From a virus, in IMG/VR virus record IMGVR_UViG_3300025872_000046, positions 1 to 64,000 of that record: a stretch of 64,000 nucleotides of DNA, one strand, 5' to 3'. Of the stretch, positions 3,417-21,615 are shown one piece after another. Below the pieces are notes generated by a model, which was not told the origin of the DNA, did not search any database, and saw only the letters and a program-made list of their open reading frames with translations. Each line of letters opens with the position of its first letter. Positions within the stretch are counted from its first letter, which is position 1. Made by a program: the position numbers and the translations under genes.

Positions 3417-3845
3417 ATGCCAAAGGTAACATACACGACAGGAAAAGGCCTTATTCAAGAGGCAGGCTCGGGAGTTCAGTTCAGTACTTTCCCATACACA
3501 ACTACTACTACAACAATCACGTCAGCCGCAAACAATACCGGCTCTCTTCCGGGACTTTACGTGGTGACTGCGGGAGCTGTTGCCACTGTTGAATTGCCGC
3601 GCGCGTCGACGTATCCAGGCGGTATGTTCATCTTTAGGAACGGCGACGCAAATGCCAACATCCTAACTGGTTCTGGGGAAGCTGCGGGGACTAAGGTCTT
3701 CGTGCTAGGAAACACGGCTGCCGGCTCAGTCAAGAATGGGGGCTCGCTGACTCTACAGGGAGTTGCTGGAGCTTCCGTTGCTCTCGTGTCAGACGGTGTC
3801 AACTACATTGTGATGCCCGGTTCTGGCTCTGTAACCATCGCGTAA
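3417..3845 (+). CDS. Small virion protein, possible head decoration
   Basis: A 142-residue Gly/Thr/Ala-rich protein with a beta-rich character (LYVVTAGAVATVELP, GGMFIFRNGDANAN, ASVALVSDGVNYIVMPG). I do not recognise the family. It is a single-gene unit between two strong terminators right after the major capsid gene, and it has its own Shine-Dalgarno (AGGAGG). This placement is typical of capsid decoration or other abundant head proteins, which is the inferred role. A small fibre or collar component is an alternative. Confidence 0.45.
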   Translation: MPKVTYTTGKGLIQEAGSGVQFSTFPYTTTTTTITSAANNTGSLPGLYVVTAGAVATVELPRASTYPGGMFIFRNGDANANILTGSGEAAGTKVFVLGNTAAGSVKNGGSLTLQGVAGASVALVSDGVNYIVMPGSGSVTIA

Positions 3846-8172: not shown

Positions 8173-11100
8173 ATGGCCGAGCAGACATTCCGTTCCCCAG
8201 GCTTCTACGAGCAGGAGATTGAGCTCGTAGCCGGGGCTCAGCAGCCCGTCGGTGTCCCAGGTGGCATCATCGGAACCGCCCAGAAGGGGCCAGCGTTCGT
8301 GCCTGTCACCATTGCGAACATGACAGACTTCACGGCGCGCTTCGGAGATCTCGATCCCCAGCGCTTCGCCCCCTATGCAGTCAACGAGTTCCTTAAGCAC
8401 AAGCAGGCCCTCACCTTCTTGAGAGTTCTCGGTGCGGGTGCAAACACAACGCTTTCGCAGATCGGCACGACTAACACGCAGGGAACAGTGACAAACGCTG
8501 GCTTCAAGATTAGCTCTGCTACATCACTTGCAGAAAGCACGGTCACAGACAGCACTGTCCAGTTCATCGCTGCTCGTCACTACATCTCCTCATCGACTGC
8601 CGGACCGACAGAAAGTGAAGGGTTCCCAATCTTCACAGACAATCCGAGCTTCTCTGTATCACACGCTGGTGGAACGACTGTCAACCTCATCCGCGGCGTC
8701 ATCTTTCCAGCTTCAGGCACGAGAATCCAAGTCGCTCCCTATGACAAGACGTACTCACCCCTTGCCCTCTCTGCATCTCTTGGGCCAGACAGCCTCACTG
8801 ACGGTCTTGCGCGTAGGTTCAAGATCATCATCTCTTCTTCCGCAGGCTCTTCATTCGATAATGACGACGGATATGTTGGGGTGAAGATTCTAACTGCATC
8901 TCTCGATCCGACTGACAACGCTTACATCTCGAGAGTGCTCAACACCGATCCGGACCTCTTCGCAACGAAGAAGCACCTCCTCTATCTCGACTTTCCGATT
9001 GAGAAGGAGCTTGCTCCCGTCCAAACTGGAACGGCAGTCACAGACCCAACAGTTCTCATTCTTTCGGGCAACTCCACTTGGAGAAACTCTTTCGGTCGCT
9101 ATGATACGAGATTCACAACTCCAAAGACCCCCTCGTTCATCTCACAGCCCTTCGGTGCATATGAGTATGACCTCTTCCACTTTGAGACCATCTCTGACGG
9201 TGAATATGCGAATGACAAGCTGAAGGTCTCGATTTCGAACATTCAGGCGAGCACTGATCCAGACCAGCCTTATGGTACCTTCGATGTCACCCTCCGCCAG
9301 TTCAGTGATGACGATCTCAACCCACAGGGTCTCGAGTACTACCCAGCTGTAGGTCTCAACCCGAAGGCCGAGAACTACATCGCAAAGGCGATCGGTGACA
9401 AGAAGGTCAACTGGAACTTCGACACTGATGAGAGATCAGAACGCAGGCTCATCATCTCTGGTAAGTACCCGAACAGGAGCGTAAACTTCAGGGTTGTTAT
9501 GAACCCCCTACTCGAGGCCGGTCAGATTCCTGCTCCTGCTCTTCCGTTCGGATTCAGAGGAGTGCCTGTCCTGAAGACCGTCGATAATCTCACAGACAGC
9601 GATCTGGGGACTCTCAACTTTGAGGGCGCAACTTTCTCGGGAGGCACAAGGCTCGTGAACCCAGCGGTGAGCCCGCTGACAGCGTCCATCCTTCCTCCTC
9701 TTCCCTACCGCTTCAAGGTCACGCGAGGAACGATGACCGAGACAAACGGTTCGGCAAACATCGGAAGCCCTGGTGCCAATGAAAGAGCAGACTCAAGACT
9801 GTACTGGGGTGTTGTTGTTCAAGCAATGCCCACGACTGCATCAGTTGACAACGCGGTTCTTAACTACAATCTTGGAACACTGCAGAATTCTCTGGTGAAC
9901 AGCTACACGAAGTTCCAAGGAATCTTCAAGCAGGATGTTCTTGTTACGGGCTCGGCGGCAGATGCATTCAACGCGAACAAGTTCACGCTTGCGAGGGTTG
10001 CTCTTGCGAACCAATCTCTCTCCACCGTGACTGGCACCGCAGAGGTTCACATGAGAGAGGCTGCATACGTTCGTGATGGCGTACCATCTTCAGTCGATTA
10101 CAGAGTCAGCTATGGTTCAGCAAATCGTGTAACTCTTGCGACTCTGGTCGCATCATCGTCTGTAGTCTTCAACAGATTCGCATCGTTCAACAAGTTCACC
10201 TCGATCTTCTATGGTGGGTTTGATGGTCTAAACATTCTTGACCGTGACAACAGGCTTATGAACGACAAGGCGTCTTCAACAGAGACAGGAACTGGCGGTG
10301 ATGACGGCAAGGCAAACGGTGCTGTTGAATCGGGCCTGGTGAACAATGCTGCTGGTTCGGGAGCAAATAACAACGTCGTTTACGCGTATCGATCTGCAAT
10401 CGATATCCTGACTGATGAGGTTTCCTCGAACATCAACATTCTCGCAGTGCCGGGAATCAGAGAGCCGCTGGTCACGACATACGCCCAGGACGCTGTTAGA
10501 GACTACTCACTTGCCCTATATGTGAGAGACATTCCATCCTATGATGACAGCGGTTTCCGCATCTTTGACGATACTGAGAGCAGGCGCCCATCGGTAAGAC
10601 AGACATCAGAGACTTTCACAAGCCTCACGATTGACAACAACTACGCTGCAACGTACTTCCCAGACGTTTACATCAACGATGCCAATCTCAACAAGAAAGT
10701 AAAGGTTCCAGCGTCGGTGGCTGCCCTTGGAGCGATTGCCTATAACGACAAGGTTGCTTACCCGTGGTTTGCCCCGGCTGGTTTCAACCGCGCAGCGCTT
10801 GACTTCGTCACGAACGTCCAAGTGAGGCTCAACCAGGGAGACAGGGACACACTGTACGATGCGAGAATCAACCCGATCGCGACATTCCCGGCGGGTGGGT
10901 TCGTCATCTTCGGACAGAAAACCCTACAGCTGAAGAAGTCCGCGCTCGACAGAGTGAACGTCAGACGTCTTCTCCTCGAGGTCAAGAGAGTTGTAAGCGA
11001 CGTGGCAGGAAGACTGCTGTTCGAGCAGAACACTCCCGCTGTCCGCTCGAGGTTCATCGCATCTGTCAACCCTCTGCTTGGGCTCATCCAGGCACAGGCT

Positions 11101-11262
11101 GGCATCGAAAAGTTCAGGGTCATCATGGATGACACTAACAACACACCACAGGACGCCGAACAGAATAGACTGAATGGTAAGATCGTCCTCATTCCGACCA
11201 AGACGATCGAATTCATTGCTGTCGACTTCGTAATCACCCCATCAGGCGTCTCTTTCGAGTGA
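8173..11262 (+). CDS. Tail sheath protein, paralogue 1 (gp18-like)
   Basis: Contractile sheath subunit. The N-terminus, SPGFYEQEIEL followed by GVPGGIIGTAQKGPAFVPVT, and the C-terminal block, YPWFAPAGFNRA then VNVRRLLLEVKRVV, are the conserved parts of the phage sheath family. At 1029 aa it is much longer than T4 gp18 (659 aa); the extra length lies in the middle, which in gp18 proteins holds the surface-exposed domains. Start is ATG at 8173 with AGGAGA. It is the first of two adjacent sheath genes. Confidence 0.92.
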   Translation: MAEQTFRSPGFYEQEIELVAGAQQPVGVPGGIIGTAQKGPAFVPVTIANMTDFTARFGDLDPQRFAPYAVNEFLKHKQALTFLRVLGAGANTTLSQIGTTNTQGTVTNAGFKISSATSLAESTVTDSTVQFIAARHYISSSTAGPTESEGFPIFTDNPSFSVSHAGGTTVNLIRGVIFPASGTRIQVAPYDKTYSPLALSASLGPDSLTDGLARRFKIIISSSAGSSFDNDDGYVGVKILTASLDPTDNAYISRVLNTDPDLFATKKHLLYLDFPIEKELAPVQTGTAVTDPTVLILSGNSTWRNSFGRYDTRFTTPKTPSFISQPFGAYEYDLFHFETISDGEYANDKLKVSISNIQASTDPDQPYGTFDVTLRQFSDDDLNPQGLEYYPAVGLNPKAENYIAKAIGDKKVNWNFDTDERSERRLIISGKYPNRSVNFRVVMNPLLEAGQIPAPALPFGFRGVPVLKTVDNLTDSDLGTLNFEGATFSGGTRLVNPAVSPLTASILPPLPYRFKVTRGTMTETNGSANIGSPGANERADSRLYWGVVVQAMPTTASVDNAVLNYNLGTLQNSLVNSYTKFQGIFKQDVLVTGSAADAFNANKFTLARVALANQSLSTVTGTAEVHMREAAYVRDGVPSSVDYRVSYGSANRVTLATLVASSSVVFNRFASFNKFTSIFYGGFDGLNILDRDNRLMNDKASSTETGTGGDDGKANGAVESGLVNNAAGSGANNNVVYAYRSAIDILTDEVSSNINILAVPGIREPLVTTYAQDAVRDYSLALYVRDIPSYDDSGFRIFDDTESRRPSVRQTSETFTSLTIDNNYAATYFPDVYINDANLNKKVKVPASVAALGAIAYNDKVAYPWFAPAGFNRAALDFVTNVQVRLNQGDRDTLYDARINPIATFPAGGFVIFGQKTLQLKKSALDRVNVRRLLLEVKRVVSDVAGRLLFEQNTPAVRSRFIASVNPLLGLIQAQAGIEKFRVIMDDTNNTPQDAEQNRLNGKIVLIPTKTIEFIAVDFVITPSGVSFE

Positions 11263-11288: not shown

Positions 11289-14207
11289 ATGGCAGAACTT
11301 ACTTTCAAGAGTCCCGGTGTAGGAACCAGAGAGATTGACCTCTCTGGTCCAACGCAGGCCGCGCCACAAGGCGTACCGGCGGGCGTAATCGGTACTTCAC
11401 TGCGAGGCCCCGCATTTGTGCCGGTCACCGTAGCAAGCTTCGCAGACTTCGTCAACAAGTTTGGTCCGACGGACGGAGAGAAGTTCGGTCCACTGGCGAT
11501 GAACGAGTGGTTCCGCACTGCGAGAGCGGGAACTTACGTGAAGGTCCTCGGTGTTGGTGATGCAAAGAAGAGGGCTGCTGACGCAGGTAACAATGCAGGT
11601 AAGGTTGAAAATGCAGGCTTCGTTGTTGGCTCGCAGCAAGTCCAAATTGGTGGAGACCTCGGAGATAACCCGTACGCATTTGTTGGTGACTTCAAGGGTC
11701 GTACGCACTTCCTCGGTTGCTATATGTCGGAGTCGAGCGGAGTGACCGTGTTCTCAGAGGCGGGAACGCAGACTACTTCAGCAGCTATTCCTGTTCTCCG
11801 TGCAGTTGTAATGGCTCCATCGGGAGTCCAGCTGGTTCTTTCTGGTAACTCAGGAGTCAATAACAGCCTACCTGCGACGACTCAGCCTACTACTTCATAC
11901 GGTTTCATGACTGGAACCGTGAAGCTTGTGGATTCATCTGCTAACGCGATTCAAGAGTTTGTTCTCCTCCTCAGCGGCCATAAGGCGACTTCAACTTATC
12001 CGAACATAGTGACAGCAAGCTTTGACCCGCAGGCTCCAAATTACTTTGCGGAAATCTTCAACACTGACCCAACGAAGATCGAACAAGCAGGTCACTATCT
12101 TTACACTGCATATGATGTGTATCGCGCATACGCTCCAGTGACCGGCACAGGAGTCGTTACAGCTGGAGCGGGTGGAAACGTTGCTGGTACTAACGAGGAA
12201 ATTGCTTTCATTCTCACAGGCTCACAGGCGTTCAACACTGGATCAACGACTGCTCCAAACTTCGAGGGATTCGAGGACAGATTCCAGACGGCGTTCTCAC
12301 CCTACGTAATCTCACAGGATTTCGGTGGTTCTCCTGTAAACCTCTTCAAGGTTCATGCTCTTGATGACGGTGCGTACGCAAACACGAAGTTCAAGATCTC
12401 GATCAGGAACATTACACCGTCGACCGACCCCACGTCAGAGTATGGCTCTTTTGACCTCTACGTGAGAGAGTTCAGCGACACTGACGACGTTCCACAGGTC
12501 CTCGAATCGTTCATCGGCCTCACAATCAATCCCGCTTCAGAGCGATACATCGGCAAGATGATCGGCGATATGAAGACCTACTACGACTTTGACAGAGTCG
12601 CAGGAGCTCAGAAGATTGTCGTTGAGGGCAACTATAGCAACATGTCATCCTACATTCGCCTTGAGATTCCTGATGACGTTGAGAATCAGGAAGTACCAGC
12701 GAATGCACTGCCCATGGGTTTCCGCGGAATCAACTACCTGAACATAGCGGGATCCAGCCAGTTGACAAGAGTGGATACTGTCAAACAGGTTCCTGTTCCA
12801 TTCAGACGCTCTCTCGCTCTCGGCACTGGAACTGCCGCATCAGCCTCCCCCTACTTCCACTGGGGAGTCCAGTTCGAGGTCAACAACTCAACGTCAGAGC
12901 CGAACAAGAACACGTACACTGACAACACAGTGTCATCGCTGACGAAGTACTTCAGCAACTACTTTACGGTCTCTGCGAACCCGTGGATCTCGACGAACGC
13001 TGATACTCACAATAACAACCTGTTCACTCTCACAAGAGTGCAGGTGACGGACACATCTTCTCTCACGGGCTATCCTGATCCGAACAAGTGGGCGAACGCT
13101 GGTTACTCAAGGAACGGAACGCTCGGTTCCGGTTTCACCAGATTCATTGACCCGACTTCTGACTTCGCGGACTTCACCACAAGGAAGTTCCTCAAGTTCA
13201 GCTTCTTCGTCCAGGGTGGGTTCGACGGTGTCAACATCTTCAACAGCGACAAGGCAAAGCTCCTTACGAATGCAGCTGCAAGAGAGATGGACTACACCAC
13301 CACGCAGTTCGGCCCTGCGGGTCCGACGGTGGCGGCATACAGGAAGGCCATCGACATCCTACAGGACAAGTCGTTCGCTGACATCCAGATCCTCGCAATC
13401 CCTGGCATCAGGGAGCCGGGAATCACGGATTACGCAATCGATGCTGTCACGAACCGCTTCGATGCCATCTACCTGATGGACATCGAGGAGAGGAACATCA
13501 ACGATGAGGTCATCACCGGTTCTGGTGACACGGTCTCTGTCTCACTCACTGCCAACGGCCTCAAGAACAGGCGTCTCGACACCTCATTCGCGGCAGCCTA
13601 CTTCCCTGACGTGGTGATGACAGACCCAACAACACAGACAAACCTCATCTGTCCTCCCACTGTCGCGGTTCTTGGAGCCTTCGGTCTCAACGACTCGCTG
13701 GCCTACCCATGGTTTGCTCCTGCGGGCTTCACTCGCGGCGCACTCTCGACAGTCGTTGAGACGCAGACGAAGCTCAATAGGGACAATCTCGACGTCCTGT
13801 ACAGCAACGACGTCAATCCGATCACAACGATTGCTGGATCTGCGACTCCGGTCGTCTACGGACAGAAGACACTCCTCGCAAGAGCCTCTGCTCTTGATCG
13901 TGTAAATGTCCGACGTCTGCTCATCGACCTCCGTCGCAGGGTGAGGACCGTTGCCAACACCATCCTGTTCGAGCCGAACAGGGCTGCAACGCTGGCGAGG
14001 TTCTCTGCTCTTGTCGACCCCATCCTCAAGCAGATCCAAGCCCAGCAGGGTGTTGATCGTTACAAGGTGAAGATTGACACAACTACCACGACACAGGCTG
14101 ACGTGGAAAATAACACCATTCGTGGCAAGATCTTCATCCAGCCCACGCGCTCGGTTGAGTTTATCTCTCTCGACTTCGTGGTTTCCAACCCCAACGTAGA
14201 GATTTGA
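11289..14207 (+). CDS. Tail sheath protein, paralogue 2 (gp18-like)
   Basis: A second, divergent sheath subunit of 972 aa. It shares with paralogue 1 the N-terminal pattern (SPGVGTREIDL, GVPAGVIGTSLRGPAFVPVT), the middle motif QGGFDGVNIF, the IREPGITDYA segment, AAYFPDV, YPWFAPAGFTRG and the C-terminal VNVRRLLIDLRRRV. The two differ strongly in the middle. ATG at 11289 follows ATAAGGAG. Whether both are built into one sheath or only one is assembled cannot be told from sequence. Confidence 0.92.
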   Translation: MAELTFKSPGVGTREIDLSGPTQAAPQGVPAGVIGTSLRGPAFVPVTVASFADFVNKFGPTDGEKFGPLAMNEWFRTARAGTYVKVLGVGDAKKRAADAGNNAGKVENAGFVVGSQQVQIGGDLGDNPYAFVGDFKGRTHFLGCYMSESSGVTVFSEAGTQTTSAAIPVLRAVVMAPSGVQLVLSGNSGVNNSLPATTQPTTSYGFMTGTVKLVDSSANAIQEFVLLLSGHKATSTYPNIVTASFDPQAPNYFAEIFNTDPTKIEQAGHYLYTAYDVYRAYAPVTGTGVVTAGAGGNVAGTNEEIAFILTGSQAFNTGSTTAPNFEGFEDRFQTAFSPYVISQDFGGSPVNLFKVHALDDGAYANTKFKISIRNITPSTDPTSEYGSFDLYVREFSDTDDVPQVLESFIGLTINPASERYIGKMIGDMKTYYDFDRVAGAQKIVVEGNYSNMSSYIRLEIPDDVENQEVPANALPMGFRGINYLNIAGSSQLTRVDTVKQVPVPFRRSLALGTGTAASASPYFHWGVQFEVNNSTSEPNKNTYTDNTVSSLTKYFSNYFTVSANPWISTNADTHNNNLFTLTRVQVTDTSSLTGYPDPNKWANAGYSRNGTLGSGFTRFIDPTSDFADFTTRKFLKFSFFVQGGFDGVNIFNSDKAKLLTNAAAREMDYTTTQFGPAGPTVAAYRKAIDILQDKSFADIQILAIPGIREPGITDYAIDAVTNRFDAIYLMDIEERNINDEVITGSGDTVSVSLTANGLKNRRLDTSFAAAYFPDVVMTDPTTQTNLICPPTVAVLGAFGLNDSLAYPWFAPAGFTRGALSTVVETQTKLNRDNLDVLYSNDVNPITTIAGSATPVVYGQKTLLARASALDRVNVRRLLIDLRRRVRTVANTILFEPNRAATLARFSALVDPILKQIQAQQGVDRYKVKIDTTTTTQADVENNTIRGKIFIQPTRSVEFISLDFVVSNPNVEI

Positions 14208-14246: not shown

Positions 14247-14735
14247 ATGGCCGAGACACTGTCAGTTACCGACATGCTTCCCAATAGGTTCGAGCCCAAG
14301 CGCAAGTTCCGATGGGTTCTTGCCATTGAGGGCATCGACGCTTTCTTGGTGAAGACTACCGCAAGACCCCAGATCGACATGGCGGCAACGGAAATCCACT
14401 GGATTAACACGGTCCGCTACGTCGCCGGTAAGGCGAAGTTCAGCACGATGGCAGTCACCCTCTACGACCCGATTGCGCCCTCCGGTGCGCAGCAGGTGAT
14501 GGAGTGGGTGAGGACCCACTATGAGTCGGTCTCTGGCCGCGCAGGCTACGCCGACTTCTACAAGAGAGACATCCAGCTGAAGATGCTTGATCCTGTTGGA
14601 ACTGTGGTTGAACTCTGGGACATCAAGGGTGCCCAGATCGCGACTGCGCAGTTCAACGACCTCGATTACGGTGCTGAGGAGGCGATGGAAGTCGCTCTCA
14701 CACTGCAGTTCGATAACTGCGTCCTGCAGTACTGA
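14247..14735 (+). CDS. Tail tube protein (gp19-like)
   Basis: Subunit of the inner tail tube through which DNA passes. Length (162 aa) is that of T4 gp19 (163 aa). Characteristic features are the N-terminal FEPKRKFRWVL strand, the central region VTLYDPIAPSGAQQVMEWV, and the C-terminal DLDYGAEEAMEVALTLQFD. It follows the sheath as in T4 (18-19) and is followed by a terminator. ATG at 14247 is preceded by AAGGAG. Confidence 0.92.
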   Translation: MAETLSVTDMLPNRFEPKRKFRWVLAIEGIDAFLVKTTARPQIDMAATEIHWINTVRYVAGKAKFSTMAVTLYDPIAPSGAQQVMEWVRTHYESVSGRAGYADFYKRDIQLKMLDPVGTVVELWDIKGAQIATAQFNDLDYGAEEAMEVALTLQFDNCVLQY

Positions 14736-14835: not shown

Positions 14836-15681
14836 TTGTCAGACAGAGGCGATCGTAATCAAGTGTTCGGTGGTGGTCATCCCATGGGAATCCCCACTCG
14901 CGATGTAATGAAGGATGATTTCGGCTTTGAGATTCCCGTGGAGTCGATTCCCCTTCCGTCAAGGGGTCTAGTGTATCCGACAGACTCTCCCTTGCACGGC
15001 AAGGAGACTGTCGAGGTGAGAGCGATGACTGCTCGTGAGGAGGACATTCTTACCTCAAGAGCTCTCATTAAGAAGGGGACTGTCATCACTGAGCTCATCA
15101 AGTCCTGCCTGGTTGACAAGAGGATTGATGTCTCGAAGATGGTTTCTGGTGACAGGAACGCACTGATGGTTGGCCTTCGTGTGACCGGCTATGGATCAGA
15201 TTACAACGTTGAGATCGAGTGTCCGCACTGCCAGAGCAAGTCAAAGCAGACTTTCAATCTCTCTGAGCTTGAGCTCAAGCCTCTAGATCTGCAGCCTGTT
15301 GAGATTGGACAGAATCTTTTCGAGGTCCAGCTTCCAGTCACCAAGAAGAACGTCAAGTTCAAGTTCCTCACGGGTGCGGATGAAGAGGAGATCCTCGTCA
15401 TCCAGGAGAGAAAGAAGAAGGCCGGCGGTCTCGCAGACAATCTCGTGACAACGAGGCTGCAGTTTAGCCTTGTAGAGGTCGATGGAAAGTCCGACAAGAA
15501 TCTCATCAATTCTTTCATCAGGAGCATTCCAGCGAAGGATTCTCTCTTTATGCGACAGATGATCGATCAGGCTGAGCCGGGAATCGACATGAAGTCTTAC
15601 ATGGACTGCCCTTCATGCTCTGAGAGCTCGGAGGTGCGGATCCCTTTGGGACCGTCCTTCTTTTGGCCTGACGCCGGGTGA
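14836..15681 (+). CDS. T4-type baseplate / tail-assembly protein with zinc ribbon
   Basis: A 281-aa protein of the T4 baseplate hub family (gp26-like). The signature region, ESIPLPSRGLVYP, then VRAMTAREEDILTSRALIKKG and GDRNALMVGLRVTGYG, matches what I recall of that family. Two Cys pairs (CPHC, CPSC) look like a zinc ribbon. Start is TTG at 14836 with GGAGGC upstream. It ends FFWPDAG at a TGA, right where another frame begins to code for conserved-looking sequence (see 15680). Its position between tail tube and tape measure is where tail assembly chaperones lie in most tailed phages, so a chaperone role is likely. Confidence 0.78.
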   Translation: MSDRGDRNQVFGGGHPMGIPTRDVMKDDFGFEIPVESIPLPSRGLVYPTDSPLHGKETVEVRAMTAREEDILTSRALIKKGTVITELIKSCLVDKRIDVSKMVSGDRNALMVGLRVTGYGSDYNVEIECPHCQSKSKQTFNLSELELKPLDLQPVEIGQNLFEVQLPVTKKNVKFKFLTGADEEEILVIQERKKKAGGLADNLVTTRLQFSLVEVDGKSDKNLINSFIRSIPAKDSLFMRQMIDQAEPGIDMKSYMDCPSCSESSEVRIPLGPSFFWPDAG

Positions 15682-15928
15682 TAAGGAGATCTTCCTCGAG
15701 CAGGCGTTCCTCTTGATGTACTATATGGGATTCAGTTATTGGGAGTGCTACAACATTCCCATATCGTACAGGATATGGTTCATCAGGAGAATCAACGAGG
15801 AGATCAAGAAGACGAATGAAAAGGGTGAAGGGCAGTCACGAGCTCTTCACCATAATACTCCTGACGTTCGATCCCTGCAAAGTAGAGCAAGGGAGCAGGT
15901 TCCTTCACGATTAAGACGTTTCACATGA
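15680..15928 (+). CDS. Probable +1 frameshift extension of the tail chaperone
   Basis: The frame +1 to the previous gene is open and codes DKEIFLEQAFLLMYYMGFSYW and on to RIWFIRRINEEIKK, which reads as real protein starting exactly where the upstream frame stops. No start codon is placed correctly for its AAGGAG (15683-15688): the first candidates, TTG 15713 and ATG 15716, are about 25 bases away. A +1 slip of GGG to GGT at the TGA (15676-15681) would join FFWPDAG to DKEIFLEQ. Frameshifted chaperone pairs just before the tape measure are a conserved feature of tailed phages. Independent translation from 15713 is the alternative. Confidence 0.6.
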   Translation, partial: DKEIFLEQAFLLMYYMGFSYWECYNIPISYRIWFIRRINEEIKKTNEKGEGQSRALHHNTPDVRSLQSRAREQVPSRLRRFT

Positions 15929-15954: not shown

Positions 15955-16194
15955 ATGGAACCTGAGCTTAGAAAGTCCATCCTTGAGTACATTCTCGGTA
16001 AGAGAAAGAGTCTTGAAATTTCTGGACCTCCAAGAGTCCTTGCGACTCTTCACGAGGCAATAGAATCATCGAGAAGCCTGCTCGCTACCCTTCGCAGGGG
16101 AGAATCTCCTGAGAGACTGAGAGAGTCACTCGATCGCAGGAAGAGAGCTGCAGAGCGTTTCAAGAATGTAACTGGCGAGGACTGGGACATTTGA
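15955..16194 (+). CDS. Small helical protein before the tape measure
   Basis: 79 aa, mostly helical and highly charged (MEPELRKSILEYILGKRKS at the N-terminus, RESLDRRKRAAERFKN near the end). I do not recognise the family. The N-terminus fits loosely the 'LR..(I/L)' pattern shared by other putative head-packaged proteins here, with an I-L-E motif at 9-11. It lacks a Shine-Dalgarno; a late box sits directly in front of the ATG. A role in tail or head assembly is inferred from position only. Confidence 0.55.
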   Translation: MEPELRKSILEYILGKRKSLEISGPPRVLATLHEAIESSRSLLATLRRGESPERLRESLDRRKRAAERFKNVTGEDWDI

Positions 16195-16233: not shown

Positions 16234-19200
16234 ATGGCAGACGCTGAAAACCTCAAAATCCAGCTACAGATTAACGCTGCGATCGCAGAGAGAAGTAAGC
16301 TTCTCAACGCACAGACGTCTCAAATTTCAACGCAGGTAGAGCTTGCAACACAGTTCTGCAAGGCGATGAAGTGTGAGGACATCGACAAGATCACTGAGCG
16401 CATCGCTGAGATTCGGGCCGGCCTCGGCGCTGCTAAGAAGGCCGCCGACAATGCAACGGGTGGAATCAACGACCTCGTAAACGGTCTTGATAAGGCAACG
16501 GGTTCCACGCAGAACATGAAAACTGCGGCCGAAGAGGCGCAGGAATCATTCAAGAAGTTTGCGAATGATTTCGGATCGGGCTTTGGCAAGGCCACTGCAA
16601 TTGCAAAGGGCTTCGTAAAGAGCATAACCGCTATTGGGCAGGGGATCTTCAGTCTCGGCCTCAGCTTACTCAAGCTACCCCTGACAGTCTTCGATAAGAT
16701 GGCTGAGGCTGCGGGTGAGATGGCGAGTGACACGTCAATCTTCGAAGCAAAGGAGAGAATTCGTGAAGAGTTCGGAGACCTCAACAGTGGCTTAGCGAAG
16801 CAGGTAATCAGTGCGCAGGCTTCGATCTCTCAAGCTCTCGCAAAATCTGGGAGATCCATCGCCAGCGTCTTTGGAACCGGCCCTCAAGGCATCGCTGCAA
16901 GCTTTGAAGCAGCCGCTGATCTTGCCAAGGGTCTCGGCGATGTCGTGAACATCCTCGGTGAAGATTTTGACAAGGCTGCTGGAGATCTCTACGTTTTCAA
17001 GACAGGGATGGGTCTCGCCAATGAGGACATAAAGGGTCTCGTTGTCGCTGCCACCGTCAGCGGTCAGAAGGTTGGAGATCTCGCTGGAACGATCCAAAAA
17101 CTTTCTCAAGACTTTGCGAAGATGGGATTCAGCACAAAGGGATTTGCCAGAGACATGACGTACATGCTCACCAATACAGTGAAGTACGGCAAGCTCTCAG
17201 CAGCCCAAGTCGCAGCGACAACTGCTTACGTGAAGAAGCTCGGCCTCGAGGTGAAGCAGATAGAGAGCCTCAACGCTGCATTCGACGACTTTGAGACTGC
17301 AGCAACGAACGCTTCAAAGCTCGCTCAAGCGTTCGGCATGCAAGTTGATGCGATGAAGATGATGAAGGAGCAGGATCCGGGCAAGCGATTGCAGATGCTC
17401 CGCGACTCGTTCAGAGCGACAGGCAAGTCAATCGACCAGATGACACGGCAAGAAAAGCAGCTCCTTGCCCAGACTGCGGGTCTTGATGAGTCAATCGTTG
17501 AGCAGGCTCTCTCAACGAAGAACATGGGCAAGTCCTACAAGCAGCTCAGCGATGAGTCTGAGAAGAGCGCGAAGAAGCAGAAGTCTCAACAAGAGATGTT
17601 CGAAGAGCTCGGTAATGCCATCAAGAAGATGACTGAGGCTCTTTCGTATAGCGGTGGGTTCTTCAACCAATTCTTGAGTGGGATGGGAGAGGGAATCAAG
17701 CGCTCAGGCCCCATGCGCCAAGTTCTTCGTGATATGGGCGGCGCGCTACGGAGCGTGCGCATGTTCGGTAGGGAAGTCGGTGACATGTTCGTCAAGATGT
17801 TCCCGGGCGTGAAGCAGATGCTCGATGCCTTGCACGAGTTCTTCAAGGGTGGAAATTTCAAAAAGACTCTCAACGACTTTAGAGAAGTCTTCAAGAAGTT
17901 TTTCTTGGACCTCGAGAAAGACCCAAAGAAGGCTCTCGATAACTTCTATCAGAATCTAAAGAAGAAGTTCACGGACATTTTTGATAGAAACAGCTCAGCA
18001 GGAAAGGGTTTCATAGAAGGGGCCAAAAAGTTTCTCGTGACTGTGGGCGCGATCATAGCTGGCGGGATAAAGATCGTTGGAGAGCACCTCGCTGATGGCA
18101 TCAAGAGGTTTGCAGACTTTATTAGAAACCCAGATCAGCTGGTGGGGAAAGCGAAGACCATGGGTCAGACTTTCTTCGACCCCATTCTTGCGTCGATGGC
18201 AGACGTCCTGCCGAAGATTGCTTCGGCGATGGGAGATCTCTTCAAGGCTCTGCTAATCAAGCTTGCCCCCACCATCATAAAGTACATGAGCATCTATCTC
18301 ACATTTGCGATAACGATGGGGCTCATGAGTGCCGTGACGGGCGGAGTGAAGGCAGCCATCGGCGAGGTCGTGAAGAACGCGATCTTGAAGAAGTTTGGAG
18401 CTGCAGTTTCGAAGGCGGCAGCTCCCACTGCACCACCCGGTATGGGAGCAGGAGCGGGTGGTGCAGTGGGTGGCTTCATTGACGGCTTTGCAAAGATCAG
18501 TCTCACAGGCATCGCAAAGGCCGGCGCAAAGATGCTCGCCATCGCTGCAATGCTCACTGTCGCCGCAGCTGCAATGGTTGGCGGCATGATTCTTATCGGC
18601 AAATTGATCGCAGCAGGCGGCGGCATGGGAGTATTCATCGAAGGTCTTGAAGCTCTGGCAGCTGGCATACTCGCAATCGTAGGGATAACCTTTGCCGCAA
18701 AATTCATCAGTCCTGGCGCTATCTTGAAAGCCTCGGCTGGAATGCTAGCTGCGACCCTGTTCCTCGTTCCGCTCGGACTATTCGTTTATGCGCTCAACCA
18801 AGCTGTCCAGATGGTCGGTCCAATAGACAGCAACGCAATACTCGCATTTTCTACCGCTGCCGCCATCGGCATCGGTGCAATTGCCATTGCCTTCGGGGCA
18901 GCAGCGCTCGCAGGCGCAGCGCTGATGACTCTCGGCGGTTGGGTCGCGGTGGGTGCTGCTCTTCTTGGCCTTGGTCTCATCGCCGCCTCTCTCTACGCGT
19001 TCGGCGAGTTCATGGGGATCATGAATCAGATCGTGAGCTCAATCGGACCGATCGATTCAAAGTCAATAATCGACTTCTCTTTAGCCACAGCAGCAGCACT
19101 GGGCTCAATGGCAATTGCATTTGCTGCTACTATAATCGCAGGCGGCGCCGTCGTGTTTGCCGCAGCCGCCGCCGGGCTGCTGGGGCTTTTCGGCCCAGCT

Positions 19201-21615
19201 ACTCTCTGGGGCATCGGCAAATTGATGCAAGCTCTGGACGACACCGTCTCTAAAATGCCAATCGATGCGACTGCGGTGAGTGATTACTCTAAGGCTGTCG
19301 CCGAGTCTCTCGGCTGGCTAGCAATCGCATTTGGAGCTGTCATACTCGCGGGAGCTGCAGCAGTCATTGCAGCAGCAGGTGCAGCGCTACTCGCTATATT
19401 CGGCATAGCTACGATGGGGTACTTGGGACTCTTTTTCGAAACTCTCAGCTCTATCACCAGTCAGATAAAGATAGATCCTGCGGCGGTCACGGCCTTCACT
19501 GATGCATTGAATAGCGCTCTTGGAGACGTGATAATAGCGTTCGGTTACACCACCGCAGCTGGAGCTGCGGCGGTGGTCGCGATGGTGGGGGCTGCCCTTC
19601 TTGCAAGCACTGGCGTCGCTGCCCTCAACATGATCATGACGTTCTTTGAAGTCGGTCTCTTCACTACCATCAATGAGATGAAGAGTAAGATCAAGCCCGA
19701 TGAGGTTGCAACTTTCACAAAGAGCGCCACGTCAGCCCTGGGTGATGTGATCAATCTGTTCGGCTACGCAACGCTAGCCGGATTAGCTTCGGTGGGTGCT
19801 CTCCTCGGAGCTTGGACCTTGTCAGAGGCTGGCGTTAGCGCTATGAAAAACATAGGCAAGTTCTTCCAAGAAGGACTAACTCCGCTGTTCAAGATGGACG
19901 GGGCACAAATCTCGTCTGCGGGTGAAATCATGGCAGGAGTTTCTTCCACTCTCAGACAGATCATCGATTCGATGGTGCTGTTGACAACTGCGGGAGAAAT
20001 CCTCATTGCCAATGACATCGCAGGTTTGTTCGGTCTCGTCGATTCACCAATGCAGGTTGGATTCAGGGCGATAGGAGGATTTCTCAAGAGCATCGAAAAA
20101 GACCTTGTCCCTTCATTGAAGGGAATAGCTGGCGTGAATGTTCCCACCGGTGTCGATCAGGTGGTCGGTCTCATTGCCAACCTAATGTCAGGCATGGCAC
20201 CTGCACTTGAGATGTTCATGAAAGTGCATGACAGTGCTGGCGGCTGGTTCACAAGCTCTGCTACGAAGGCAGAGAACACTAAGAAGATGATAGACTCACT
20301 TGGAACGTTCATACAAACGATTAGCAAGTCAGCATCAAGCACATTCGCGATAATCATAGTGGCCGCAAATTCTCTTACCGTCGATGAGGGCCTTCAAAAG
20401 AGATTCGAGATGGTCGCGAAGGCCGTCGATATGACGACGAAGTTGATCTCTTCATTCACTGGGATCCTGTCCGCTCTCCCTAAAATAGAAAAAGGCAAGG
20501 CTGACACCGCTGCGAGTGTCGCGAGGGCTTTCATTGATGCTCTCAACGCAATGAGGAGCGTCATCTTTGGACCGAACGGAATGATCAAGTCGATCACCAG
20601 TGAGATACCTCGAGTCATTGACATGATGAGGGGCGCAGCAGAAAAGCTTCCGAAGGATCCCAAGGAGCTAGCAAAACTCTCCAAGAGAGTGGAAGTGATC
20701 GGAAAGATCGTGGAAGCAATCGCTACGATGGGATCAACGCTCTCTGAACTCTCTGGAGCAATACCGCAATATGACGTAGTTGTCGGAAGCGGTAAGGATG
20801 CTAAAGTCATAAAGCGACAGATGACAAACATAAAGGGATACTTCGCGACAATCACAGAAGCCATCGGTCCACAGCTCCAGGTTCTCGCCAACAAGTTCAT
20901 GGCCGTGCAGTTCACGATGGATCTCAAGAGCATGAGAGAGCAAGCGAAGAAGATCTACATCGTCATGAACACTTTCAAAGATCTAAGCCAATTTGTGTCT
21001 GGCATGCAGTTGAAGGACGTTACAACTAACGCAAAGAAGGACGTCCCAAGGAAGGAAACAATCGAAGAGGCAGTCACAAGAATATCGAACGCTGGCATGT
21101 GGGTTCTATCGGGAATGAGAGACATGTCAAACTGGATAAATCGCGGCGGAGGCGCAGAACAATTTGCAATTGACTCTTCCAACGTGCAAGCGGCACTAGC
21201 TGGAGTACCAGAAGCGTATGAAAAGATGACTACAACCTTTGACAAGATCAAGCCTGCATCGCAAGCTATTGGGAGTTTCACAAAAGCAGCACAAGCTGAG
21301 ATTGTCGAGCAGGTGAGAGACGCTGTTGTGAGTATGAATGAGCTTGACGAGATTCTAAAAGATCTTCACATCGGTCCAATTGATGCAACAATCGACAGAC
21401 TGGCGAAGAACATGGAAATCTCCAAGGAGAGCATCAGCATTAATCACAAGCCCATCAACATCAACCTGCAGATGCACGTCTCCTTCAAGGCTGAAGAGTT
21501 TACAAAGGACGTGTTCAAGGTCGCTGGTAAGCTGACTAAGGAAGGAAATTTCAACCTCAGCACATTCGCGAAGAAGCAATATGAAGAGGCAGAGAAGTCG
21601 AGGAGCGGAAGATGA
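16234..21615 (+). CDS. Tail tape measure protein
   Basis: Sets tail length and is ejected ahead of the DNA. It is the longest gene (1793 aa), directly after the tail tube and chaperone genes. The N-terminal part is helical and Lys/Ala/Glu-rich. The middle (residues about 690-1220) is very hydrophobic, with many Ala/Gly/Ile segments that could span a membrane and five tandem units of 70-76 residues. The C-terminal part returns to charged helices. At the usual 1.5 angstrom per residue this predicts a tail near 270 nm, about 2.5 times that of T4. It overlaps the next gene by ATGA. Confidence 0.9.
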   Translation: MADAENLKIQLQINAAIAERSKLLNAQTSQISTQVELATQFCKAMKCEDIDKITERIAEIRAGLGAAKKAADNATGGINDLVNGLDKATGSTQNMKTAAEEAQESFKKFANDFGSGFGKATAIAKGFVKSITAIGQGIFSLGLSLLKLPLTVFDKMAEAAGEMASDTSIFEAKERIREEFGDLNSGLAKQVISAQASISQALAKSGRSIASVFGTGPQGIAASFEAAADLAKGLGDVVNILGEDFDKAAGDLYVFKTGMGLANEDIKGLVVAATVSGQKVGDLAGTIQKLSQDFAKMGFSTKGFARDMTYMLTNTVKYGKLSAAQVAATTAYVKKLGLEVKQIESLNAAFDDFETAATNASKLAQAFGMQVDAMKMMKEQDPGKRLQMLRDSFRATGKSIDQMTRQEKQLLAQTAGLDESIVEQALSTKNMGKSYKQLSDESEKSAKKQKSQQEMFEELGNAIKKMTEALSYSGGFFNQFLSGMGEGIKRSGPMRQVLRDMGGALRSVRMFGREVGDMFVKMFPGVKQMLDALHEFFKGGNFKKTLNDFREVFKKFFLDLEKDPKKALDNFYQNLKKKFTDIFDRNSSAGKGFIEGAKKFLVTVGAIIAGGIKIVGEHLADGIKRFADFIRNPDQLVGKAKTMGQTFFDPILASMADVLPKIASAMGDLFKALLIKLAPTIIKYMSIYLTFAITMGLMSAVTGGVKAAIGEVVKNAILKKFGAAVSKAAAPTAPPGMGAGAGGAVGGFIDGFAKISLTGIAKAGAKMLAIAAMLTVAAAAMVGGMILIGKLIAAGGGMGVFIEGLEALAAGILAIVGITFAAKFISPGAILKASAGMLAATLFLVPLGLFVYALNQAVQMVGPIDSNAILAFSTAAAIGIGAIAIAFGAAALAGAALMTLGGWVAVGAALLGLGLIAASLYAFGEFMGIMNQIVSSIGPIDSKSIIDFSLATAAALGSMAIAFAATIIAGGAVVFAAAAAGLLGLFGPATLWGIGKLMQALDDTVSKMPIDATAVSDYSKAVAESLGWLAIAFGAVILAGAAAVIAAAGAALLAIFGIATMGYLGLFFETLSSITSQIKIDPAAVTAFTDALNSALGDVIIAFGYTTAAGAAAVVAMVGAALLASTGVAALNMIMTFFEVGLFTTINEMKSKIKPDEVATFTKSATSALGDVINLFGYATLAGLASVGALLGAWTLSEAGVSAMKNIGKFFQEGLTPLFKMDGAQISSAGEIMAGVSSTLRQIIDSMVLLTTAGEILIANDIAGLFGLVDSPMQVGFRAIGGFLKSIEKDLVPSLKGIAGVNVPTGVDQVVGLIANLMSGMAPALEMFMKVHDSAGGWFTSSATKAENTKKMIDSLGTFIQTISKSASSTFAIIIVAANSLTVDEGLQKRFEMVAKAVDMTTKLISSFTGILSALPKIEKGKADTAASVARAFIDALNAMRSVIFGPNGMIKSITSEIPRVIDMMRGAAEKLPKDPKELAKLSKRVEVIGKIVEAIATMGSTLSELSGAIPQYDVVVGSGKDAKVIKRQMTNIKGYFATITEAIGPQLQVLANKFMAVQFTMDLKSMREQAKKIYIVMNTFKDLSQFVSGMQLKDVTTNAKKDVPRKETIEEAVTRISNAGMWVLSGMRDMSNWINRGGGAEQFAIDSSNVQAALAGVPEAYEKMTTTFDKIKPASQAIGSFTKAAQAEIVEQVRDAVVSMNELDEILKDLHIGPIDATIDRLAKNMEISKESISINHKPININLQMHVSFKAEEFTKDVFKVAGKLTKEGNFNLSTFAKKQYEEAEKSRSGR
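18823..19890 (+). repeat. Tandem 70-76 residue hydrophobic repeats in the tape measure
   Basis: Units begin at about 18823, 19051, 19261, 19471 and 19690. Each opens with an Ile-Asp or similar pair and a short polar helix (xxFSxAxxxALG), followed by AIAFG-like and Ala/Gly-rich segments. DNA identity between units is low, so the repeat is old and kept at protein level. Confidence 0.75.

What the first reader, a model, noticed from the sequence alone, without database searches (positions are those of the whole stretch)
15640..15928. Candidate +1 frameshift at GGG_TGA in the tail chaperone
The upstream product ends FFWPDAG at TGA. The +1 frame is open across the stop and gives DKEIFLEQAFLLMYYMGF without a usable start codon. 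Sliding of the last tRNA from GGG to GGT would fuse both, reminiscent of RF2-type +1 shifting at a UGA. Frameshifts between tube and tape measure genes are conserved, but usually -1.
Basis: partly seen in the sequence, partly recalled or inferred. Interest (0 to 1): 0.55.

Follow-up and report, generated by a model that had tools for sequence, protein, structure and literature searches.

The report
Conserved +1 frameshift in phage tail gene
The virus very probably makes a longer version of a tail-building protein by having some ribosomes skip one base near the gene's end, at a short conserved sequence shared by hundreds of related viruses, a few of which shift one base backwards at the same place instead.

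Summary
The upstream ORF (14836-15681) is a T4 gp26-like protein (PF12322) lying between tail tube and tape-measure genes. The +1 frame after it (to 15928) encodes a conserved C-terminal domain with no proper start. Of 306 loci examined (252 unique), the domain is in the +1 frame in 234, the -1 frame in 16, undetermined in 2; none is an in-frame fusion. GGG_TGA occurs in only 3 of 234. The conserved site is five codons upstream: UUU_UGG at 15661-15666. All 234 have a Phe UUU (or CUU) codon there able to slip +1, 233 of them followed by a pyrimidine; UUU_Y is a known +1-prone motif in bacteria. Family-wide, the shift must fall within about 17 nt around it. The 16 minus-1 loci have U_UUU_UUC or a variant at the same Phe pair; two such groups nest inside +1 clades, so direction has flipped. 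An SD-like GGAGGU 22-41 nt upstream is strongly enriched and unexplained. Best reading: a lambda G/GT-type tail assembly chaperone gene expressed through +1 programmed frameshifting, in the family whose T4 members use two genes instead. New variant of a known kind; no protein evidence yet.

The parts
14836..15681 (+). frame-0 ORF (281 aa, TTG start as called): short form, T4 gp26-like tail assembly chaperone N-part with two CxxC pairs
   Evidence: PF12322 E 1.8e-18 over cut-off; PHROG 150 'baseplate hub' E 1.8e-22
15658..15666 (+). shift site TTC TTT TGG: E-site UUC, P-site UUU (15661-15663), A-site UGG; +1 slip UUU to UUU, reading resumes at GGC 15665-15667
   Evidence: YTT_TGG_CCT in 83 of 83 window-clade loci; slip-prone UUU/CUU in 234 of 234 unique +1 loci (rows L084 and L219 re-read by eye)
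15630..15635 (+). SD-like GGAGGT, 25 nt before the P-site codon; conserved, role unexplained
   Evidence: anti-SD match of 5 nt or more at -40..-23 in 70 of 74 window-clade loci against 3.1% of control windows; position classes
15665..15928 (+). +1-frame C-terminal domain (87 aa) that makes the long form; ends RRFT, TGA
   Evidence: third-position substitution bias in this frame
15679..15681 (+). frame-0 stop TGA; ends the short form GPSFFWPDAG
15676..15681 (+).
   Evidence: 3 of 234 +1 loci
14247..14735 (+). tail tube gene (context)
   Evidence: PHROG 4542 E 6.7e-30; PF06841 E 2.4e-4, below cut-off
16234..21615 (+). tape-measure gene, 1793 aa (context)
   Evidence: PHROG 167 E 6.2e-8 and PHROG 10613 E 2.7e-6 with its first 500 residues

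Best explanation
The gene is a tail assembly chaperone of the T4 gp26 family, expressed as two proteins by programmed +1 ribosomal frameshifting. Most ribosomes read frame 0 to TGA 15679 and make the 281-residue short form. When tRNA-Phe sits on UUU (15661-15663) with UGG in the A site, some ribosomes slip forward one base, the tRNA re-pairs with the overlapping UUU, GGC is read next, and a 363-residue long form with an extra small domain is made. By analogy with lambda G/GT, many short and few long forms would coat the tape measure and recruit the tube protein. Shown by sequence: the conserved +1 domain, the shift window, the site and its codon choice. Inferred: that the ribosome shifts, at which of the two Phe codons, how often, and the chaperone function. 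The role of the SD-like element is unknown.
For: Of 252 unique loci the domain is in +1 in 234, in -1 in 16, undetermined in 2, in frame 0 in 0. In the +1 stretch substitutions against the window fall 787/505/1535 on codon positions 1/2/3 over 57 loci, as in the upstream frame-0 part, 894/589/1746. Residue conservation passes from frame 0 to +1 at the site; stops interrupt the +1 frame upstream (at codon -10 in 51 and codon -6 in 53 of 208 UGG loci); the nearest +1 boundary is 8 nt before UGG and the nearest frame-0 stop 9 nt after it, so one family-wide mechanism must act between. Site codons: UUU_U 197, CUU_U 21, UUU_C 15, UUU_A 1 of 234 (L084 and L219 re-read by eye). The second Phe/Leu codon ends in U in 83 of 83, while Phe is TTT in only 32% of the same genes; the first Phe is UUU in 78 of 83. 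UUU_Ynn is stated to be especially prone to +1 shifting in bacteria without an adjacent stop, and UUU_U replaces CUU_U in some RF2 genes (PMC5009743, passages). The fused +1 clade and the fused -1 clade align through the junction (hhalign E 3.9e-26). Only 2 of 234 loci have a +1-frame ATG at or before 28 nt past the site with a 4-nt SD match.
Against: No protein, profiling or reporter data. The loci share ancestry, so counts are not independent, and the domain HMM was built from members of the set. No strong downstream structure: mean z -0.2 to -0.9 in 40 sampled window-clade and 40 sampled other loci. The SD-like element is too far for the 3-nt spacing known for +1 stimulation (PMC5009743, passages). 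In Yersinia, changing a UUU-UGG proposed as a +1 site did not abolish the hybrid (PMC3789692, passages). In UUU_UUU_UGG and UUU_CUU_UGG loci the first codon could also be the slip codon, so the exact P site is not fixed. Of loci scored +1, 125 of 234 have some ATG/GTG/TTG in the +1 frame at or before 28 nt past the site (47 with ATG; the script passed over the few loci whose +1 frame is open more than 120 nt upstream, so these start counts are slight undercounts).
Confidence: 0.87

Rival explanations
1. +1 shift at GGG_UGA: tRNA-Gly slides from GGG to GGU when the stop is slow to be read.
For: The sequence allows it here; P-site slides before a stop are known (CCC_UGA; PMC5009743, passages).
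Against: GGG before the stop in 3 of 234 +1 loci; stop type and distance vary, while the upstream site does not.
Confidence: 0.04
2. Separate translation: the C-part is its own gene, started by reinitiation or at an internal ATG/TTG such as 15713/15716.
For: Public records often annotate a short separate ORF there, e.g. L082, L083, L088, L092; 9 of 234 loci have a +1-frame ATG within 10 nt of the stop.
Against: ATG with a 4-nt SD match at or before 28 nt past the site in 2 of 234; the commonest first ATG is 52 nt downstream (60 of 234), inside the conserved part, and 17 of 234 have none within 240 nt. +1-frame residues are conserved from the first codon after the site.
Confidence: 0.05
3. Transcriptional slippage on the run of T drops one U and puts the parts in frame.
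For: 187 of 234 +1 loci have a run of 7 T.
Against: 43 of 234 have a longest run of 4 or fewer, the window among them with TTCTTTTGG; all keep a slip-prone UUU or CUU codon.
Confidence: 0.04
4. Neither product matters: decayed gene or assembly error.
For: None found.
Against: 234 unique loci from many samples with coding-type substitution.
Confidence: 0.005

Closest known systems
Lambda G/GT-type tail assembly chaperone frameshift (-1; review PMC5009743, passages)
   Same: Gene between tube and tape measure; short form plus rarer C-terminally extended form made by frameshifting near the gene's end
   Different: +1 rather than -1; different protein family (PF12322); site UUU_U/UUU_C or CUU_U instead of a -1 heptamer; in lambda the two proteins are proven
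T4 gp26/gp51 (Vladimirov, Gautam and Davidson 2022, not held; known here only from citing passages in PMC10885494, and PMC12846349)
   Same: Same gp26 family; short and long form; our profiles confirm gp26/gp51 paralogy (E 6.2e-17)
   Different: T4-like phages are reported to carry a short gene and a separate long fused gene; here one gene and a frame change. That the two genes are gp26 and gp51 is my reading; the passages do not name them
-1 frameshift in tail chaperones of Vandenendeviridae and of some T4-like phages (PMC12846349, passages)
   Same: Poly-U site at the end of the short form, domain read through in another frame
   Different: -1; homology to this family was not tested here. 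Jumbo phages PBECO4, XbC2, PA5oct and others, which are homologous here, also show -1
RF2 (prfB) +1 frameshift
   Same: P-site CUU_U or UUU_U slip to UUU; SD-like element upstream
   Different: Sense codon UGG, not UGA, in the A site; SD-like element 25 nt away instead of 3; no autoregulation implied
HSTV-2 tail chaperone and Listeria phage PSA (+1; PMC5009743, passages)
   Same: +1 frameshifting in phage tail genes; HSTV-2 is a myovirus
   Different: PSA acts at proline CCC in major capsid and tail genes; the HSTV-2 site was not seen in the passages read

Membership tests
T4_baseplate / gp26 family (PF12322) | Profile match above curated cut-off | tested here: met
   67.5 bits against 24.5
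G/GT-type frameshifted tail assembly chaperone | Gene between tail tube and tape measure | tested here: met
   same order in L082, L083, L087, L089 (the annotations name the tape measure only in L082 and L087)
G/GT-type frameshifted tail assembly chaperone | C-terminal extension in another frame, conserved, lacking its own start | tested here: met
G/GT-type frameshifted tail assembly chaperone | Both proteins made in a set ratio and needed for tail assembly | not testable with these tools
   needs expression data
RF2-type +1 frameshift | Slip-prone P-site codon CUU_U or UUU_U | tested here: met
RF2-type +1 frameshift | Stop codon UGA in the A site | tested here: not met
   A-site codon UGG in 208 of 234, never a stop
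RF2-type +1 frameshift | SD-like element about 3 nt before the P-site codon | tested here: not met
   element lies 25 nt away in the window; matches of 5 nt or more at -22..-5 in 2 of 74 and 3 of 160 loci
-1 heptamer frameshift (X_XXY_YYZ) | Extension in the -1 frame | tested here: not met
   In the window no -1 frame stays open more than 60 nt past the stop; met in 16 other loci
DUF6760 (PF20546) | Profile match above cut-off | tested here: not met
   15.3 bits against 27 for the window; 8 of 26 members match at E up to 0.1, best 8.6e-5

The most novel reading that the evidence does not exclude
A Phe-Phe site in one phage chaperone family works as a two-way switch for reading frame. U before the pair and UUC as second codon (U_UUU_UUC) goes with -1; G, C or A before it and UUU_Y goes with +1. 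Direction has flipped several times within the family, and the +1 form uses a new, distant SD-like stimulator about 25 nt upstream that no known spacing rule covers.
Probability: 0.3. Interest if true: 0.75.

Novelty: new variant of a known kind. Interest (0 to 1): 0.58.

Why it matters
G/GT frameshifting was held to be conserved in long-tailed phages except T4, and T4-like phages are reported to use two genes instead. Here a large group of viruses carrying the T4 gp26 family makes the long form by frameshifting, mostly +1, and homologous relatives do it by -1. This gives a ready comparative set for asking what sets shift direction at one homologous site, a set of +1 sites without a stop codon, and a way to correct the annotation of many phage genomes in which the long form is missing.

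Tried and rejected
Rejected: GGG_TGA as the family's site, separate initiation, and transcriptional slippage (see rivals). A -2 shift was not pursued: the window's UUC UUU and the UUU CUU variants give no good -2 re-pairing (by inspection).

Downstream RNA structure: z-scores weak; no covariation analysis was made. Pairing of the GGAGGU element with nearby sequence: only slightly above shuffles. GGAGGU as an internal start signal: an ATG 10 nt after its first base in 22 of 76 loci of the -34 class but 0 of 25 of the -28 class, so not consistent.

T4 gp51's C-terminus looks like the shifted domain by eye, but the profile test of the domain against gp51 was not significant; only gp26/gp51 paralogy was. 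A first profile run used a wrong global setting and was replaced. The Streptomyces-type C-parts do not match the window clade's C-part on their own (E 0.051); their tie rests on the whole protein (E 2.3e-16).

DUF6760 in bacterial genomes: nothing found in 3 genomes nor in the 14 controls, which shows nothing. Plasmids: no relative. Solved structures: no relative (best E 0.36). The +1 part alone found nothing in phage records.

Dropped before counts: one search left out L084-L088 and L001 (83 of 89 sequences then held, window included); one search left out 50 duplicates and 4 loci whose frame 0 ran off the contig, and never included L001, L097, L118-L127. The tree used 157 representatives of 249 rows.

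Full report
What is there. The window is part of an 83,467-base virus record. Tail genes run sheath-like, sheath, tube (14247-14735), the upstream ORF (14836-15681), the +1 stretch (to 15928), a 79-residue ORF (15955-16194), tape measure (16234-21615). The upstream ORF is a member of PF12322, T4 gp26-like (67.5 bits against a cut-off of 24.5).

Relatives. [quoted passage not shown]). Loci were chosen by the N-part, not by the frame of what follows. The C-terminal domain follows in +1 in 234, in -1 in 16; 2 contigs end too soon (L035, L278); none is an in-frame fusion. The frame was called by an HMM made from part of the same set and by openness; 4 of the 250 called loci (L105, L110, L114, L221) rest on openness alone.

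The site. In 83 of 83 window-clade loci the frame-0 codons are [UUU or UUC] [UUU or CUU] UGG CCU: 64 UUU UUU, 14 UUU CUU, 5 UUC UUU (the window is of the last type). In all 234 +1 loci the site is UUU_U 197, CUU_U 21, UUU_C 15, UUU_A 1 (L084 and L219, where the script took one codon too far, were re-read by eye). The A-site codon is UGG in 208. GGG_TGA occurs in 3 of 234. Wobble choice is not codon bias: Phe is TTT in 32% and Pro is CCT in 17% of the same genes, while the site has U at the wobble of the P-site codon in 83 of 83 and CCT in 83 of 83; for CCT, double coding (Leu in +1) is enough to explain it.

The shift window. Across 208 UGG loci residues are conserved in frame 0 up to the second Phe and in +1 from Gly onward, and the +1 frame upstream holds stops in many loci. 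The nearest +1 boundary is 8 nt before UGG and the nearest frame-0 stop 9 nt after. If the family shares one mechanism it acts in about 17 nt, where the Phe/Leu codons are the only good re-pairing place. Downstream, substitutions concentrate at +1-frame third positions (787/505/1535 over 57 loci).

Direction. The 16 minus-1 loci all have U before the codon pair: U_UUU_UUC in 10 (L085 re-read by eye), U_UUC_UUC in 5, U_UUU_UUU in 1; U precedes the pair in 6 of 234 +1 loci by the script's register. Profiles of the fused +1 and fused -1 proteins align through the junction (E 3.9e-26). On a tree of 157 representatives with the site left out, direction changes 4 times, at least 2 forced by well-supported branches; L157 (L224 is its near copy, 88% identical) and the L186 group lie inside +1 clades (quick method, deep nodes weak). 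The -1 site in the L186 group (U_UUC_UUC) is a poorer heptamer and only a candidate.

The SD-like element. An anti-SD match of 5 nt or more lies 23-40 nt before UGG in 70 of 74 window-clade and 101 of 160 other +1 loci, against 3.1% and 2.3% in control windows of the same genes; six-nt matches in 51 of 74 and 66 of 160 against 0.2-0.3%. Its Glu codon is GAG in 69 of 71 against 743 of 1423 in the window clade. GGAGGT starts at -34 in 74 loci and at -28 in 25, so the encoded position moves while the sequence stays. In the -1 loci it is present in 2 of 16. Known spacings are 3 nt for +1 and 9-14 nt for -1 (PMC5009743, passages); 25 nt fits neither. I leave its role open.

Meaning. Position, family, short plus long form and the T4 precedent point to a tail assembly chaperone pair. 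The review read here says G/GT frameshifting is widely conserved except in T4 (PMC5009743, passages). A 2022 paper (not held) is cited as showing that T4-like phages have a short gene and a long fused gene (PMC10885494, passages) and as a source for poly-T -1 signals in T4-like chaperone genes (PMC12846349, passages). So gp26-type chaperones and -1 shifting are known; a +1 shift at UUU_Y in this family, its breadth, and its flips to -1 were not found in my searches, which cover open-licence papers only. UUU_Ynn as a +1-prone site in bacteria is known (PMC5009743, passages; original work by Schwartz and Curran 1997 recalled, seen only as a reference entry).

Annotation. In the annotated phage records fetched around this gene (L082, L083, L086-L096) the gp26-like CDS is never joined to the shifted part; the shifted part is a short separate ORF or absent.

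Limits. Everything rests on sequence comparison. The loci are related; metagenomic contigs dominate; hosts are mostly unknown.

Noticed in passing
window 15955-16194: 79-residue ORF between the shifted domain and the tape measure with no family match in Pfam or PHROGs beyond chance.
   Followed up: no
window 8173-11262 and 11289-14207: Two adjacent large ORFs (1029 and 972 aa) that begin alike; the second matches tail sheath families. Possibly a duplicated sheath gene.
   Followed up: no
window 15665-15925 and 25 related C-parts: Weak likeness of the shifted domain to DUF6760 (8 of 26 members, best E 8.6e-5, below cut-off), recalled as a small protein of extracellular contractile injection systems; these may shift frame too.
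   Followed up: partly
window 15630-15635: Conserved GGAGGT about 25 nt before the shift codon in most +1 relatives, outside known stimulator spacings; function unexplained.
   Followed up: partly
L157:2250-2275 and L186:2223-2245: Viruses inside +1 clades whose extension is in the -1 frame, with UUC instead of UUU at the site: natural direction flips.
   Followed up: yes
L085 (595-kb uncultured phage), about 3690-3775: -1 frame open 115 nt before the frame-0 stop, GGT TTT TTC well upstream, and a TAATG overlap at the stop: either -1 frameshift or coupled start.
   Followed up: partly
L092 and L090 (PBECO4, XbC2): Annotated separate ORF starts at a TAATG overlap, but the same frame is open back to T_TTT_TTC; probably a -1 frameshift product mis-annotated.
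   Followed up: partly
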